64,000 bases of DNA. Origin: Pezicula radicicola (taxonomy: Eukaryota > Ascomycota > Leotiomycetes > Helotiales > Dermateaceae). The DNA lies in contig PDUO01000011.1 of the NCBI GenBank assembly GCA_003008705.1, forward strand, positions 487,956 through 551,955, read 5' to 3'. A program made the translations under genes and the position numbers. Numbering within the stretch: position 1 is the first letter of the stretch; each line of letters starts with the position of its first letter. This document shows, one piece after another, positions 18,325 to 55,294 of the stretch. Under the pieces are notes generated by a model that ran no database searches, was not told the DNA's origin, and worked only from the letters and a program-made list of their open reading frames with translations.

Positions 18325-20839
18325 GCAAATTGTAGAATTTCGCTGTGTGGAGTAGGATTGTCAAATAAAAGCAAAATATTCCACGTACGTTAGCTTCCAG
18401 AAGAGCTTCCCCGGTACACATTCAATTATCAGTCCGGAGGTTAAGACAGTTGTGGTTTCCACCACTAACAAAAGCTGCAATTGTGAATAAACTGTTGGGT
18501 CGACAACAAGGAAAAGAGACTTGGTAGGTATTAAAGTGATTTCATTTGCTCAGCATTCTACCAAGTTTGTCTGTACTATCGTCGATGTTAGTGGGAAAGT
18601 TAGTTGGAACAACATACCTTAAGAAGGGTGCTACGATGAACAACGTGGTGTGGCCTTATTTGGTTATAGTTTCCATCTGCTATAGGGTGCCTCTGTAACG
18701 GAAACAACTGATTATATTCAACAATTCTAAGTGTGAACTAAATGCGTATTTCTTTAAGAAGACCCTTTTCAAACCTTTCAAAGTTTTATGGAACAGTTAG
18801 TTCAGCTTTGTTAAGATTCTAAGTTAGTTTGATTACTTTGGGAGTTGTGCTATGATTCTTCTAAAGCTTTAGAAATATATCCAGTCTTATATGTGTTAGA
18901 AGAGGTTATCCGTTGAAGGTGCTTACAGTATGTGAGTTGTAAAGACTTCACAAAAATATAGACTAGGTAGACTCTGATTTGTTCTAAGAGTTATGATTGA
19001 TATCCCAGAAGCATTAGGTTTTGTCATTTGCTCTGCTATAATAACCTCGCCCAATTACAGTCTTGTTGACCATTCACTTCTTCAAAATTTAATATCTATA
19101 TGATCTCCCAACCTTCCTGTACTTTATCCAATTGGTCACCTGGTTTAAAATATCTTCGGGTTACAAGAAATAGATAGTCTTAATCTCGATTATGTACTTA
19201 CCAAAGGATATTATACGCAAAAGCTAACATAATCTCTAAATTAATTTTTTTTAAGTGTTAACGTGTATAAAGGTTCCCTCTACTATAGTATATCTGTTCA
19301 CTTACCCAAATATGTCTCTTAAGATTGCTAACTTCTTGAACAAAATGACGAAGTGGATGTATATAGGTTTTCGTTGTTAGGATTGTTGCTGGGAAGGGAA
19401 CACTGTAGATGTATCTAATAAATAAATACACAGATTACGTGGTTAAGGAACAAATAGCGCTTTGGAAAGGTCTATTGCTTTTAGATTCGTACTGGCGATT
19501 GGTTTAAGCATGGCGTCTGTGTTAGAAGGGCTGCTTGAATGCTGGAAGAGTTTTTTTGAGGTAACGTACTGTACGAACTGGTTTATAAGAGATCATTTTT
19601 GAAAAGCTATCTATTTAGACATTAGAGACAGAGTCGAGTAACTTGCTTGATCTAGGTAAGTTATTTAATTTGAGTAGCTTACTTGACTTGGGTAACTCAG
19701 TTGCCCTAATAAAATGATCTCTTATAAACCAATTGGTACGGTATTCATAGGTCATGACCTTGATCGTTGGAAGACTGCTTGAAGGTATTATTAGGCTCCA
19801 GCTAGTCGACTAGATGGAAATCCGACAGAATGCCGTCTATATGTCCTTCGTTTCTAGTATTAAAATAGACTCTGGTAAGTTTGAGGCCGTGCTGCTAAAA
19901 TAGGATTTCGGTGACTGAAGTTATAAATAATGGGGTCCTCGTGGTCATTGTGTTTCAACTGATTCTTCACAAGAGGGATCCTGTCCCTGTACTTCTGCGT
20001 TATATTCTACTGCACGAATAGGAACCTGAGGCGCAGGGTTAGCCTGTGTACATTAATACAGCAGTAGTATAAATGGCAATTTTTTGCCGACTTGAAAGCA
20101 ATGTCTTTTGCTAGATACTTTGCGTATATTTTTAATGGCGAGTTTCAAGCCTAAATCCGACTTGATGATAGCTTAAGGAAGTGCTGTCTTGCCGTCAATT
20201 GAGGCGTAGGTGCGATGTTTAAAGTTAGTGTCGAAAGCATTTACCTGTTAGTATTTACAGAGCTAGAAGTTCAACCCAGAAGAGGCCATACTCTTACTTG
20301 GCGCGGGGCTTAACATGTATAGCAATCGAGCGATGCTTGTAGCAGAAAATGATCTGACTCTTTTCGAGGAATACTACCAGGAACAGACACTCCAAAAGTT
20401 CCCCGGCACTTGCACTTAGCAATAGATAATGCATACAGTACACACAACACTCGCAAAAAGGCAGTCTCTAGTTTAAGTTAAGAAAACCGTCGAATTAGTC
20501 TACCTTAGGTAGGTAGGTACTTAGCATTCGCAAGCAAGCATTTCGTATCTAGAAAAAAACAGACTAAGGAAAAGGCTAAGGGAAGGAAAAACCAAGTAGC
20601 AAGAGCATGCCTAGTTACAATTTAGAGCCCATCCATCCCGAGCCCCTATGATATTGAATTCGCATCGCTACCCCCATCAAATCAATTGAGTTCATTTCCA
20701 TTCCAACGGTCTCCAACTCCATCCACAGACTTGCAGATCTCGTCTGTAGAACCATCGGGATTTTTCATTGCCTTATTTCCCCCTAACGATCATAAGGTAC
20801 TTTTATATTTGGTGGTTGTTGTGTTAGGGGTTTGTGCAT
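18325..20839. other. Long AT-rich intergenic region with a MITE
   Basis: About 2.5 kb without a supported gene between the ends of ABP1 and the CYSTM-like gene. Sequence from about 18450 to 20100 is AT-rich with dense stops in all frames. It contains the MITE described separately at 19569-19741. Nothing else with structure was recognised. Confidence 0.55.
19569..19741. mobile_element. 173-bp MITE with TA target duplication
   Basis: The two ends are inverted copies over about 31 bp with three mismatches. The left end begins CTGTACGAACTGGTTTATAA, and the right end read in reverse begins CCGTACCAATTGGTTTATAA. The element is bounded by TA on both sides (19567-19568 and 19742-19743), the duplication expected of Tc1/mariner-type transposition. 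It has no coding capacity. Decayed relatives lie at 47850-47990 and 59561-59680, so it belongs to a genomic family. Confidence 0.8.
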
Positions 20840-37967: not shown

Positions 37968-39619
37968 CTATTTGAGCTCCTGTCCTGCCAAGTCCCATCG
38001 CACTAAACGGGGAGTTAGCAATTACTTCTTCTATAGGGAATTTGGAGTTATTGCTCCCGAGACATGTCTCGAGAGAAAACGTCTTAAAAGGGGATGTCTC
38101 AAGAGGAACTCCTCTTAAAATACTCCGAATAGGAATGAAAGTGCTCCCTCATACGTACCTCTCGCAACCCCAGAACTTCCCACGATCCAGAATTCCTTGT
38201 AGTCTGCTCCTGTCCAGGCGAAATTCTGCACAGTAAAGTTGGTCTGTACTCTGACCAACAAAGTTCCTTCTGGATCCAATACGTCGACTCCTTTGCCAGC
38301 ACCGGTCACTGGAACACATATCAGCTTTCAAATTGTGCAGGGATTTGATGAAATGGGCAACTCACAAACATAACCATTCCCGGCAACCTTCAACCCGTCA
38401 GGAATCCAATCTTGGGCCAGATAAATGGGCCTCTTGTTAATAATATGATTCCCATCCTCGGTTAAATCATAAGCGTAAACCGTCCTCTTCCCAGTCGTAT
38501 TAAACCTAGTGCCCTGGCTACCAATAGACTGCAGAATTGGGCCTTGGATTGCCCCAGAATCCGTAAGGTACACTGTTCGAGACGAGGAGTTGGGCAAGAG
38601 AGGAGAAATTGCTATTCCGTTTGGTTGGATGATGGAGTCGTCGATTATGTTGACTGCGCCAGTTGAAGGACGGAAACGATAAGATGCTGTTTCTAGTTGT
38701 GGAGCAGTATCCGTCAATGCGTTAAACCATGAGTATTCTGTTCTTGTATTAGCTCCACAATATCTCAGTCTTGTCATCGGGGCATTTACGAGGATCCGTG
38801 AACCTATGTTGTGGCCATTAATATAAGCGCTTTTGAACTAAGCGCGAGATATAGAGAACACTCACCAGACATCGCCCTTATCATCGACGAAGAGATCATC
38901 AACAGTATTGAAATAATACCCAAAATAGTTGTTCAACAACGTAACCGTCTTATTCGTCGTAGGATCTAAAGTCGCTATACCAGGTCTCTCTTCAATACCA
39001 CCGACGCTATTGTTCCCACCTGACACAGCCCAATAGATCCTGGGGGTAACATTAGCGAGCAAGACCCAATCCAAAGACACAAAGAAACCTACAATCCATC
39101 ATGTATTGTTCCTCCATTGGGGGCATATATTGGAGGATCAGAAATCAACTCCCCAAGATATGGAGGATCATAATTCAAATTGACAACCAACTGGGGCAGA
39201 AAACCCGGCGGGCTCGTCGCTCCAGCCAGTTGCGAAAAGTACAACTTATTTGTAACAGGCGACCATACAGGAGCTTCATGAACGGCATCAGACACCTGAA
39301 ACATAAAATCATAAGTTGGAACTGCACCAAGAAGTTCCAGACCTCGTTGTTGGTCGAAGACGAGGAAATCTGCTGTGCTGACTAGACCGAAGGAGGTATC
39401 ATTTGGTACGGATGTTGAAGCGAATGTGTCTTCATAGGTTCCATTGTCGTCTGCTTGACGATAGAAGTGATAGGGCATTACCGATGCATATTTATTAATG
39501 CATAGAATGTTTGAAGAGGGTCCGCAGGCTTGAGCAAGTGGACTTATTGTTCCTAGTGGTTGGGCGAGGGATTTCGAGAAGAATATTAGTATTACTGAGA
39601 CGAATAATTGGACTCGCAT
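37968..39619 (-). CDS. Secreted SMP-30/gluconolactonase-like protein
   Basis: Six exons (39619-39093, 39039-38866, 38803-38790, 38737-38366, 38308-38159, 38002-37968) give 423 residues. MRVQLFVSVILIFFSKSLA is a signal peptide, so the product is likely extracellular. The beta-propeller fold of the SMP-30/gluconolactonase/LRE family is indicated by APNGGTIHDGLIYWAVSGG, DDLFVDDKGDVWFTDP, ASYRFRPSTGAV, IQPNGIAISP and the end segment FWIVGSSGVARV. Family enzymes hydrolyse lactones, often with calcium; the actual substrate is unknown. Exon 3 is only 14 nt. The last intron (38158-38003) is a near-copy of an intron in the transporter gene at 45.9 kb (see findings). Only by removing it is the normal C-terminus RWDLAGQELK reached; unspliced, the frame stops after 12 residues. 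Confidence 0.9.
38003..38158 (-). mobile_element. Introner-like intron, copy A (156 nt)
   Basis: This is the last intron of the SMP-30-like gene, with donor GTACGTATG, branch-site block GCTAACTCCC and acceptor GTTTAG. It splits a Val codon in phase 1 (G|TG). From the donor through the branch-site block it aligns with the intron at 46570-46733, with about ten differences over roughly 146 nt by hand alignment. Inside are a palindrome, CGAGACATGTCTCG, and a stem AAGAGGA/TCCTCTT. The two host genes are unrelated, so shared ancestry of the genes cannot explain the match. Confidence 0.88.
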
Positions 39620-45946: not shown

Positions 45947-47797
45947 ATGAGTTCCGCCAAGAGCGATGCCCCTGCCAAAGTTGGGGTTGTGAACGAGGTG
46001 ACTGGCAATGACGATGATTTGATTGAGGGAGGTTATTTGACGACTGCAGAAATGAGAGGATTGGAGCGAAAACTTGTGCTCAAGATCGATTGGCGACTTT
46101 GTACCATTGCTGGCATCCTGTGCTCGTTGAATCTGCTGGATTCTGGAATTATCTCTTCGGCTAGTGTCACGAGTATTTTTGCTGACTTGGGGCTGGGAGT
46201 TGGGAATCGTTATGTGAGTCTGTTTTGGATCTAATAAGGATTGACTTTTTTATTATTACTTAGGTGGCTAACACTTTGGTTGTAGTCGGTTTCTATCTTG
46301 GTGTATACTGTTGCTAGTGTGGCATTTCAGTTACCAGCCACTGTTGCGGTGAGAATTGTCGGACCCAGGGTTATGTTCAGTTGTATTACTGTTGCTTTTG
46401 GACTTATTACTATGGTGAGCTTTGAGTTCTTATCGACATCGATTTGAGGGTTAACATGCTCAGTGTACTGCTTTTATCACCAATTGGAAACAGATGGTGG
46501 TTTTGAGGTTGCTGCTTGGAATGAGTCAGGCTTGTGTTTTCCCGGGTCTATCTTACTTGATCAGTACTTGTACGTATGGGGGGAGCACTTTTATTCCTAT
46601 TCGGGAGTATTTTAAGAGGGCTTCCTCTTAAGACATCCCCTTTTAAGACGTTTTCTCTCGAGACATGTCTCGAGAGCAACAACTCCAAATCCCCTACAGA
46701 AGAAGTAATTGCTAACTCCCAATTTACGGACAGGGTATACAAGAAAAGAGCAACAACTCCGCTTTGCTTTCTTGCTTACAGGAGAGGTAACTGTGATCGG
46801 ATTGGGAGCCTTTTCGAATTATGGCCTTAATCACTTGGACGGTAAAGGTGGGCTTGCTGGTTGGAGGTAAGTACAAACCTATTCTCCCAAACCTCTGCTT
46901 ACGCCTTTTAGGTGGATGTTTTTGATACAAGGCCTGATTGCCATTTGTAAGTCCAACACTCTATTGTTGTATCTCCTAGTACTGGGACTGACCGGCCAAT
47001 TAGTAATTGGATTTACCGTATGCTGGTGGATCGTTGATTTCCCCGAGAACAGCCACAACAGCTTCCATTTCCTCACACCACAAGAACAAGCTTTAGCAGA
47101 ACGGCGAGTTAGTAGAGATCGGGGAGACGTTAAAGCCGAAGAGTTCTCATGGAGCAAGTGTCTAATGCACTTTGCCGACCCCAAGCTCTACGGCTTCTGT
47201 GCCTTAATGTTTCTCCTAAACCTGGTTTCGACATCACTATCGTACTTCCTCCCGATCATCTTACAGAGTGGAATGGGGTTTTCAACAGACCAAGCAATTC
47301 TGCTCTCTGCGCCGCCATACTTTTATGCTGTCATTCCTGTAATCCTCTCTTCCATCGTCGGTGATTATTATCAAATGCGTGGCCTCGTCATCACATTCAA
47401 TTGTGTCTGCACTATTGTCGGTTTTTGCATGCTAGGCTTTGCTTCGCAGGTAACTGTCCGCTATGTTGGCACATATCTCGCTACTGGAGCATATGTTAGT
47501 AACTGGGCAGCGATGAATGCGTACCAAGCAAACAATATCGTGGGACAGTGGAAGAGAGCAACTTTCGCAGCTGCCGTCACTGCTTGCAATGGGCTCGGTG
47601 GTATCGCCGGCGCTTTTATCGTGAGGGCTGTTGAAGCACCAAGGTACAAAACTGCGGTGTACGTTTCAATATTTTCGCATGTTCTTATTATCGTTATTGT
47701 GGCTATGTTTACGGCGTACTTTTGGTATGCGAATGGGAAGCAGAAGAAGGGACAGGCTTTAGTGGAGAGGACTTTGGGGTTTAGATATACTTATTGA
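45947..47797 (+). CDS. MFS permease, Dal5/Tna1 (ACS) type
   Basis: A major-facilitator permease of the anion:cation symporter branch, whose fungal members carry allantoate, nicotinate, pantothenate or similar organic anions. Six exons (45947-46213, 46286-46414, 46464-46569, 46734-46866, 46912-46946, 47004-47797) give 487 residues. Typical segments are KLVLKIDWRLCTIAGILCSL at TM1, SQACVFPGLSYLISTWYTRK, GLAGWRWMFLIQG and WWIVDFPENSH. The third intron (46570-46733) falls inside the conserved ISTWYTR motif and is a near-copy of the intron in the SMP-30-like gene. Its removal rebuilds the Trp codon T|GG exactly. The fifth intron is 57 nt and stop-free in frame, so ORF finders read through it. Substrate unknown. 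Confidence 0.92.
46570..46733 (+). mobile_element. Introner-like intron, copy B (164 nt)
   Basis: This is intron 3 of the Dal5-type permease gene: donor GTACGTATG, branch block GCTAACTCCC, acceptor GGACAG, phase 1. It matches copy A at 38003-38158 over nearly its whole length; similarity ends just after the branch block. Here the central palindrome is longer (22 nt, centred on ACATGT at about 46663), and the second stem is TTAAGAGG/CCTCTTAA around a 4-nt loop. The transcript strand is the same as in copy A, as required for both to splice. Confidence 0.9.
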
Positions 47798-54472: not shown

Positions 54473-55294
54473 ATGCGTGGACAAACTATCTACTTTGCGC
54501 TGGTCGCCATTGCTTGCTCAACACAAGCTGCACCACTCACTGATATCCAGAAGCGCGCGGGACTTGATGCTCTCGCTGGTCTCCTAGGCGGCGGCGGCGG
54601 TGCAGGAGCCGCAGCAGCAGGTAAGAGAATCAAATCTTTTTGGACTTACGACGGCATGTCTGTACTCAGGGTGTATCCTTCTTCGTTTTGTGGAGAATGG
54701 TTGGTGTTCGATTACTGAACCTAGCATGATACTGCCCTGAATTAGCCTGCTCACCTATTGTTTACGTTGTTCACCTGATCGAGCATTCGCTGACTTCTCA
54801 CAGGCGGAGATGATGCCGCTGGAGGTGCTGGCGGATTAGCTGCTCTCCTAGGCGGCGCCGGCGGTGCAGGAGCCGCAGCAACAGGTAAATAATTCCCAGT
54901 TCTTGTCGAAGTTGAAGCATGTCTTGATCGGAAGTATCATTGCTTGGTCTATGAGAAATGTTAGCCGGTTTCCGTTAGTACGGTCCGACCAAATTCATTC
55001 TCAGACCCTACTTGGTTCTCCTGGATTCGTGCACTCCAACTTCCAACCGTTTCTAAGCTGAACACTTACTAAATGCCCACAGGTGGAGCTGATGCAGCTG
55101 ATGGTGCTGCTGGCGCTGGTGGATTAGCAAGTCTTCTTGGAGGACTTGCAGGAGGAGCAGGCGGAGCTGGTGGTGCTGCTGGAGCCGGCGGGCTAGCTAG
55201 TCTTCTTGGAGGACTCGCAGGAGCTGCAGGAGGAGCTGGAGCGGCGGACGGTGCTGCTACTGGTGCTGCAAGCAACACTACCGCTGCAGCATAG
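54473..55294 (+). CDS. Small secreted Gly/Ala-rich repeat protein
   Basis: Three exons (54473-54620, 54804-54884, 55083-55294) give 146 residues. MRGQTIYFALVAIACSTQAA is a signal peptide, and a KR dipeptide after DIQ is a likely Kex2 site. The mature part is almost pure Gly, Ala and Leu, built from units such as GGLASLLGGLAG (twice in exon 3) and GLLGG/LLGGAGGAGAAA. Every internal splice is phase 1 inside a Gly codon, and exons 1 and 2 end in nearly identical DNA. This suggests growth by exon duplication. Secretion is well supported; function is unknown. A cell-wall or surface role is a guess. The stop is immediately followed by GTAAGG, so a longer alternative 3' end cannot be excluded. Confidence 0.8.

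What the first reader, a model, noticed from the sequence alone, without database searches (positions are those of the whole stretch)
46570..46733. Near-identical introns in two unrelated genes: introner-like elements
Seen: intron 3 of the Dal5-type permease (46570-46733, +) and the last intron of the SMP-30-like gene (38158-38003, -) align from the donor GTACGTATG through the branch block GCTAACTCCC with only about ten differences over ~146 nt. Splicing each one restores a conserved protein segment (ISTWYTRK; VARVRWDLAG), so both are real introns. The hosts share no homology and lie on opposite strands, but each intron is sense to its gene. Known: introner-like elements, introns that spread as copies, have been described in some fungi. 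Inference: this genome has an active or recently active introner family, caught in two insertions 8.4 kb apart.
Basis: partly seen in the sequence, partly recalled or inferred. Interest (0 to 1): 0.92.

Follow-up and report, generated by a model that had tools for sequence, protein, structure and literature searches.

The report
Copy-and-paste introns in a fungus
The two look-alike introns are copies of a short intron that has spread into dozens of unrelated genes of this fungus without breaking their proteins, and the same genome holds a larger family of such introns with the same folded-ends design.

Summary
The two introns differ by 9 substitutions and 2 gap columns over 151 columns. They are 2 of at least 44 copies in a 61-Mb Helotiales (Leotiomycetes) genome. 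Copies align edge to edge, GTACGTAT to TTACGGACAG. For 30 of 44, protein homology shows a sense position in a coding gene; in nine the same Pfam domain resumes after the intron, among them aconitase and ATP synthase alpha. Paralogues lack the intron at both window sites. No copy has a target-site duplication of 2 nt or more (0 of 42). This is an introner family with recent copies (best pair 99% identical).

Beyond the finding: (1) a second, larger family B (162 core matches) and a small third (5 copies). (2) A and B, unrelated in sequence, both fold with paired ends, like the near-terminal stems reported for Xylariales stwintrons. (3) One copy lies 3 nt from another intron, leaving a one-codon exon.

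Most likely mechanism (inferred): excised, end-paired intron RNA inserted directly into transcribed DNA. New member of a known kind. RNA-seq and sister genomes were not available.

The parts
46570..46733 (+). Introner family A copy W1, intron of the Dal5-type permease (phase 1)
   Evidence: One of 44 genome copies; splicing restores STWYTRK, continuous in paralogues; MFS_1 profile reaches residue 37 of 38 of the upstream exon (E 0.0012)
38003..38158 (-). Introner family A copy W2, last intron of the SMP-30-like gene (phase 2); 3' end shortened to TTTAG
   Evidence: splicing restores GVARVRW, continuous in three paralogues
46570..46587 (+). 5' arm of the near-terminal stem of W1, overlapping the donor
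   Evidence: Predicted fold; layout of the family
46711..46716 (+). Branch-site block GCTAAC of W1
   Evidence: Sequence; conserved in the family alignment
46716..46731 (+). 3' arm of the near-terminal stem of W1, between branch site and acceptor; the last AG is unpaired
   Evidence: Predicted fold
46610..46633 (+). Internal hairpin 1 of W1 (TTTTAAGAGG...CCTCTTAAGA)
   Evidence: Sequence; predicted fold; helix 4
46655..46676 (+). Internal hairpin 2 of W1 (CTCTCGAGACATGTCTCGAGAG)
   Evidence: Sequence; predicted fold
46494..46569 (+). Permease exon upstream of W1, 76 nt after the previous intron
   Evidence: Sequence reading; paralogue alignments
46734..46866 (+). Permease exon downstream of W1
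   Evidence: Sequence reading; paralogue alignments
38159..38308 (-). SMP-30-like exon upstream of W2
   Evidence: Sequence reading; paralogue alignments
37968..38002 (-). SMP-30-like last exon downstream of W2, to the stop
   Evidence: Sequence reading; paralogue alignments

Best explanation
46570-46733 and 38158-38003 are two copies of a spliceosomal introner (family A, at least 44 copies, mostly about 164 nt), one of at least two and probably three introner families in this Helotiales genome. Shown by computation: copies end at the splice sites, where tested lie in sense in coding genes, have no target-site duplication of 2 nt or more, and at the three sites examined interrupt positions that paralogues lack. 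Inferred: the mobile form is the excised intron RNA, whose two ends pair into a stem that holds donor and acceptor together. It is inserted directly into transcribed genomic DNA, by reverse splicing into an R-loop or by RNA-patched break repair, and copied into DNA; it is not carried by a spliced cDNA and not by a cut-and-paste transposase.
For: 44 copies with exact ends. Same Pfam domain before and after the intron in nine copies. Same reading frame scored on both sides in 33 of 43 and sense preferred in 37 of 43. Empty sites in paralogues at W1, W2 and L018. 0 of 42 A and 0 of 20 B copies with a flanking repeat of 2 nt or more. Recent copies. A second family B of the same habit. End pairing of 10 or more expected pairs in 39 of 41 A and 13 of 20 B copies against 2 of 17 other introns of like length. 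Neighbouring introns retained 3 nt (L039), 55 nt (L023) and 76 nt (W1) away.
Against: No RNA-seq: splicing is inferred from reading frames and homology. 14 of 44 copies have no homology support; the score prefers antisense in 6 of 43 (L005, L007, L012, L023, L027, L040), three of which (L005, L007, L012) do have a sense Pfam match. L040 is a relic outside any clear gene. Covariation within A is weak. Part of the B copies lack strong end pairing (7 of 20 below 10 pairs). The inverted ends could also be read as transposon ends. The neighbouring introns might be younger than the introner.
Confidence: 0.85

Rival explanations
1. A non-autonomous DNA transposon (MITE) whose ends happen to work as splice sites; the inverted ends are its terminal repeats.
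For: Imperfect inverted ends in A and B. Such introners are described in algae (PMC9860276 section 8).
Against: No target-site duplication of 2 nt or more in 42 A and 20 B copies; both splice sites lie inside the element; copies with homology support are in sense in coding genes, where a MITE would also be expected in antisense and between genes.
Confidence: 0.08
2. Classical route: the intron reverse-splices into a mature mRNA, which is reverse-transcribed and replaces the gene by recombination.
For: Explains exact ends, sense orientation and lack of TSDs equally well.
Against: Other introns survive 3 nt (L039), 55 nt (L023) and 76 nt (W1) from a copy; a spliced cDNA tract should have removed them, unless they are younger or the tract was very short.
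Confidence: 0.1
3. Ancient introns kept alike by gene conversion between genes.
For: None found beyond the similarity itself.
Against: Host genes are unrelated, the similarity stops at the splice sites, and paralogues lack the introns.
Confidence: 0.02

Closest known systems
Introner-like elements (ILEs) of Dothideomycetes (PMC4457414, parts 1 and 3 of 4 read; van der Burgt 2012 not seen, known through citing papers)
   Same: Near-identical introns in unrelated genes at new positions, several families per genome, more than one element in the same gene, insertion next to existing introns
Sister stwintrons and cropped sister introns of Xylariales (PMC8469720 abstract and discussion; PMC12403724 abstract and sections 14 and 16)
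   Same: Seamless insertion without TSDs; a near-terminal stem whose 3' arm lies between branch site and acceptor, about 2 nt from the end
   Different: Families A and B behave as single canonical introns, not donor-split twin introns; the stem sequences are unrelated; the class is Leotiomycetes
Introners of the eukaryote-wide survey (PMC9860276, sections 6 and 8 and passages)
   Same: Introns alike over their full width in unrelated genes; ascomycete families there also lack TSDs
   Different: The survey says ascomycete families have no TIRs; A and B have imperfect near-terminal inverted repeats. Its species tables were not seen.

Membership tests
Introner / introner-like element | Many sequence-similar introns in unrelated genes | tested here: met
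   44 A copies; 162 B core matches; varied Pfam hosts
Introner / introner-like element | Similarity spans the whole intron and stops at the splice sites | tested here: met
   Alignments (A; B)
Introner / introner-like element | Copies lie in sense inside genes | tested here: met
   30 of 44 by homology, 37 of 43 by codon score; L040 and a few others are exceptions or unresolved
Introner / introner-like element | New position: homologous genes lack the intron | tested here: met
   In-genome paralogues at W1, W2 and L018; sister species not available
Introner / introner-like element | Spliced out of the mRNA | not testable with these tools
   No RNA-seq; inferred from reading frames and domain continuity
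DNA-transposon introner (MITE type) | Target-site duplication with a co-opted splice site | tested here: not met
   0 of 42 A and 0 of 20 B with repeats of 2 nt or more
DNA-transposon introner (MITE type) | Terminal inverted repeats | tested here: inconclusive
   Imperfect near-terminal inverted repeats in A and B, equally explained as an RNA stem
[D1,2] sister stwintron (Xylariales) | Donor split by an internal intron | tested here: not met
   Copies behave as one GT...AG intron whose single excision keeps the domain in register
[D1,2] sister stwintron (Xylariales) | Near-terminal complementary elements between branch site and acceptor | tested here: met
   Same layout with unrelated sequence in A and B, compared with PMC12403724 sections 14 and 16

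The most novel reading that the evidence does not exclude
End pairing is a common requirement for intron mobility in filamentous ascomycetes. Sequence-unrelated introner families in a Leotiomycete (A and B) have arrived at the same rod-like fold, with the 3' arm between branch point and acceptor and a free AG, as Xylariales twin introns have. The mobile agent would be the linear, end-paired intron RNA, inserted directly into genomic DNA of transcribed genes.
Probability: 0.35. Interest if true: 0.75.

Novelty: new member of a known kind. Interest (0 to 1): 0.58.

Why it matters
How new spliceosomal introns arise is a long-standing question. This genome offers young introns in core genes such as aconitase and ATP synthase alpha, with empty sites in paralogues at the three sites examined. 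Two unrelated families share one structural design, so the idea that paired ends drive intron mobility can be tested.

Tried and rejected
Ordinary MITE: disfavoured by the lack of TSDs and the sense-genic placement. Repeat-induced point mutation as the source of the differences: transitions dominate (C>T 108, G>A 90 of 392), but C>T before A (41 at 10 sites) is not clearly above C>T before C (33 at 9 sites). Viral origin: five viral contigs share an 18-mer with the element and otherwise only matches of 14-36 nt at E 3. Prokaryote genomes: no exact 21-mer. Rfam: nothing in the window at gathering scores. Site preference of A: T at -2 in 20 of 39 and purine at -1 in 33 of 39, against 23 and 51 of 80 crudely predicted other introns; Fisher p about 0.02 each, uncorrected, so weak; L008, L026, L028, L030 and L040 were dropped from this count, and B does not share the -1 purine (6 of... 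8 of 20 are A or G). One search had a wrong spacing in the pattern and found nothing. The comparison set of other introns is a crude prediction from loci picked mostly for carrying introners and gives no genome-wide proportions.

Full report
What was checked. The two introns lie at 46570-46733 (+) and 38158-38003 (-). Aligned to the branch block GCTAACTCCC they differ by 9 substitutions and 2 gap columns in 151 columns. The window lies in contig C3 of a genome of 61.04 Mb in 152 contigs. An enzyme from another copy-bearing gene, aconitase (L037), is closest in the listed hits to Phlyctema vagabunda and Coleophoma crateriformis, both 90% identical. Both are Dermateaceae, Helotiales, Leotiomycetes. 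The species itself is not identified.

Family A. Blastn with the first intron gives 40 places in the genome, itself and the second intron included. A 21-mer of the branch region at up to 3 mismatches gives 43 places and the reversed control 0; four of these are new, and one blastn place (L026) is not among them. A 39-mer of the 5' part gives 31 places, control 0, none new. Together that is 44 copies, a lower bound. They align from GTACGTAT to TTACGGACAG, and the similarity stops at the splice sites (the last four copies were added). Against the majority consensus 43 copies differ by 0.8 to 12.5% and one relic (L040) by 22%. The median pairwise identity is 90%; the best pair (L003/L035) is 99% identical over the shorter, 134-nt form. 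So the family includes recent copies.

Genes and orientation. Flanks were scanned against Pfam in the sense frames only; five copies (L008, L023, L027, L028, L040) were not scanned. In nine copies the same domain ends before and resumes after the intron in register (profile positions): L002 OPT 400|403, L010 ATP-synt_ab 93|94, L016 MFS_1 102|106, L017 FAD_binding_4 85|99, L018 GH92 279|281, L034 OPT 469|473, L037 aconitase 224|225, L039 HisKA 16|18, L042 NmrA 78|90. That L010 is the alpha subunit of ATP synthase is my reading of the sequence. In four more the two sides carry domains in a plausible order (L003, L011, L025, L032). Sixteen have a match on one side only, some weak, with E-values up to 0.017 (L001, L013, L015 and the window permease; L007, L012, L019, L022, L024, L026; L005, L029, L033, L036; L014, L020). 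With the SMP-30-like gene, supported by paralogues, that makes 30 of 44. Nine scanned copies had no usable match (L004, L006, L009, L021, L030, L031, L035, L038, L041; L004 has one weak match to an animal receptor domain that I take for chance).

A codon-usage score, which uses no homology, gives the same frame on both sides in 33 of 43 copies (about 14 expected by chance) and prefers sense in 37 of 43 (L028 left out because its 5' flank is masked). The six that prefer antisense are L005, L007, L012, L023, L027 and L040; the first three have a sense Pfam match. By eye, L005, L007, L012, L014, L020, L023, L024 and L030 read through motifs that I recognise from memory. L040 has lost both splice sites and lies in no clear gene; L027 is unresolved.

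Empty sites. Of 114 matches to the window permease segment, 2 are the gene itself. By my hand count of the table, 99 of the other 112 run across the insertion point without a stop codon. The five fetched alignments have no gap at the site. For the SMP-30-like gene, three paralogue matches cross the site without a gap; one of them has a stop codon five codons before it. For the GH92 gene with copy L018, three fetched paralogues (74, 51 and 49% identical) cross the insertion point; the closest has an ordinary intron a few codons downstream.

No target-site duplication. None of 42 A copies (L028, L040 left out) and none of 20 B copies has a repeat of 2 or more nt on both sides; 1-nt matches occur in 17 and 6.

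A second and a third family. Comparing the fetched loci with each other showed other repeated introns. Family B starts GTAAGTCTCAAGTTCTCGGAGTAAAT, carries GTAAACTAACTCCGAGTTTCTGA near its end and closes with an AG such as ATAG (about 125-131 nt). A blastn search gave 118 first-look candidates, of which 40 were scored and matched. A 25-mer of its 3' part at up to 3 mismatches gave 162 places against 0 in the reversed control. Twenty were fetched and align edge to edge; their median pairwise identity is 85%, but they come from the top of the list. In L071 the Pyr_redox_2 domain continues 195|197 across a B copy; L082 has ADH_N before and ADH_zinc_N after; the other three copies scanned gave no such pair. 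Frame agreement is 12 of 19 and sense preference 14 of 19 (L076 was missed by the boundary pattern). A third family, seen at L018 and L025, has 5 copies, the other four 74-79% identical to the query. The GH92 gene L018 carries a member of all three, its B member being diverged. A and B copies lie within 1 kb of each other three times, with 0.14 expected for random placement over the genome; this used 44 A places and the 100 of 162 B places that were listed, and part of the excess is expected because both lie in genes.

Architecture. Typical A and B copies fold into one rod. In A, GTACGTATGGGGGGAG pairs with CTCCCCNTTTACGGAC. In B, the donor region and CTCGGAGT pair with ACTCCGAG and the bases before the acceptor. 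In both, the 3' arm begins at the branch site and the final AG is free. Expected pairs between the first and last 30 nt have a median of 14 in A and 14 in B. At least 10 are found in 39 of 41 A (L028, L039, L040 left out), 13 of 20 B and 2 of 17 other introns of 100-200 nt, whose median is 2.8. About 3.5% of dinucleotide shuffles reach the family medians. The consensus-like copy L003 folds at z = -3.45. The second window copy, with its shortened 3' end, keeps only the inner part of the stem. Compensatory changes within A are few: 7 cells against 2.4 in shuffles, with 5 of 500 shuffles as high (31 of 44 copies). They support the fold weakly. PMC12403724 describes 10-nt near-terminal stems in Xylariales twin introns, with the 3' arm between branch point and acceptor, 2 nt from the acceptor. 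The layout here is alike; the sequences are not.

Mechanism. Exact ends, sense placement in coding genes and no TSD fit insertion of an excised intron RNA, as argued for other fungal introners (PMC8469720 discussion). Retained neighbours add a constraint. In L039, a histidine kinase, HisKA position 17 is coded by a 3-nt exon (ATG) between another intron and the introner. In L023 a B introner ends 55 nt upstream, and in the window permease the previous intron ends 76 nt upstream. Replacement by a spliced cDNA should have erased these, unless they came later or the tract was tiny. I therefore favour direct insertion into genomic DNA, by reverse splicing into an R-loop or RNA-patched break repair. 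This step is inferred.

Known or new. The kind is known: introner-like elements of Dothideomycetes (PMC4457414, parts 1 and 3 of 4) and the wider introner survey (PMC9860276, passages and sections 6 and 8). In the open-licence paper library, 'introner' with 'Leotiomycetes' and with 'Helotiales' finds one paper each, both on Dothideomycetes by title, and 'Leotiomycetes' with 'intron gain' finds fifteen. Going by titles and abstract openings only, none of these reports introners in Leotiomycetes; one concerns stwintrons (PMC5639578). The survey's species tables were not available, so a listing there cannot be excluded.

Noticed in passing
window 19567-19747; also L007:1626-1776, L024:3835-4057, L004:1015-1149, L026:1407-1530, parts of L027 and L023: A dispersed repeat with inverted ends (GGTTTATAAGAGATCATTTT / AAAATGATCTCTTATAAACC) and variable inner units of about 18 nt like TTGATTTGGGTAACTCAC; looks MITE-like, not intron-like.
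   Followed up: partly
L018 (G000 C14:148020-152183): One GH92 gene carries introns of three repeated-intron families: a diverged B member, an A copy and a third-family copy.
   Followed up: partly
L035, L037, L041, L042: Four A copies share a 133-134-nt form lacking the same inner hairpin stretch; the deletion ends lie in alike CTCTYGAGACAT repeats, so it may have arisen more than once.
   Followed up: no
L048 (GH92 paralogue of L018): The paralogue has an ordinary intron a few codons downstream of the place where L018 has the introner, reminiscent of parallel intron gain.
   Followed up: no
window 55096-55239: 69-bp tandem repeat, about two copies, with a Gly/Ala-type coding look.
   Followed up: no
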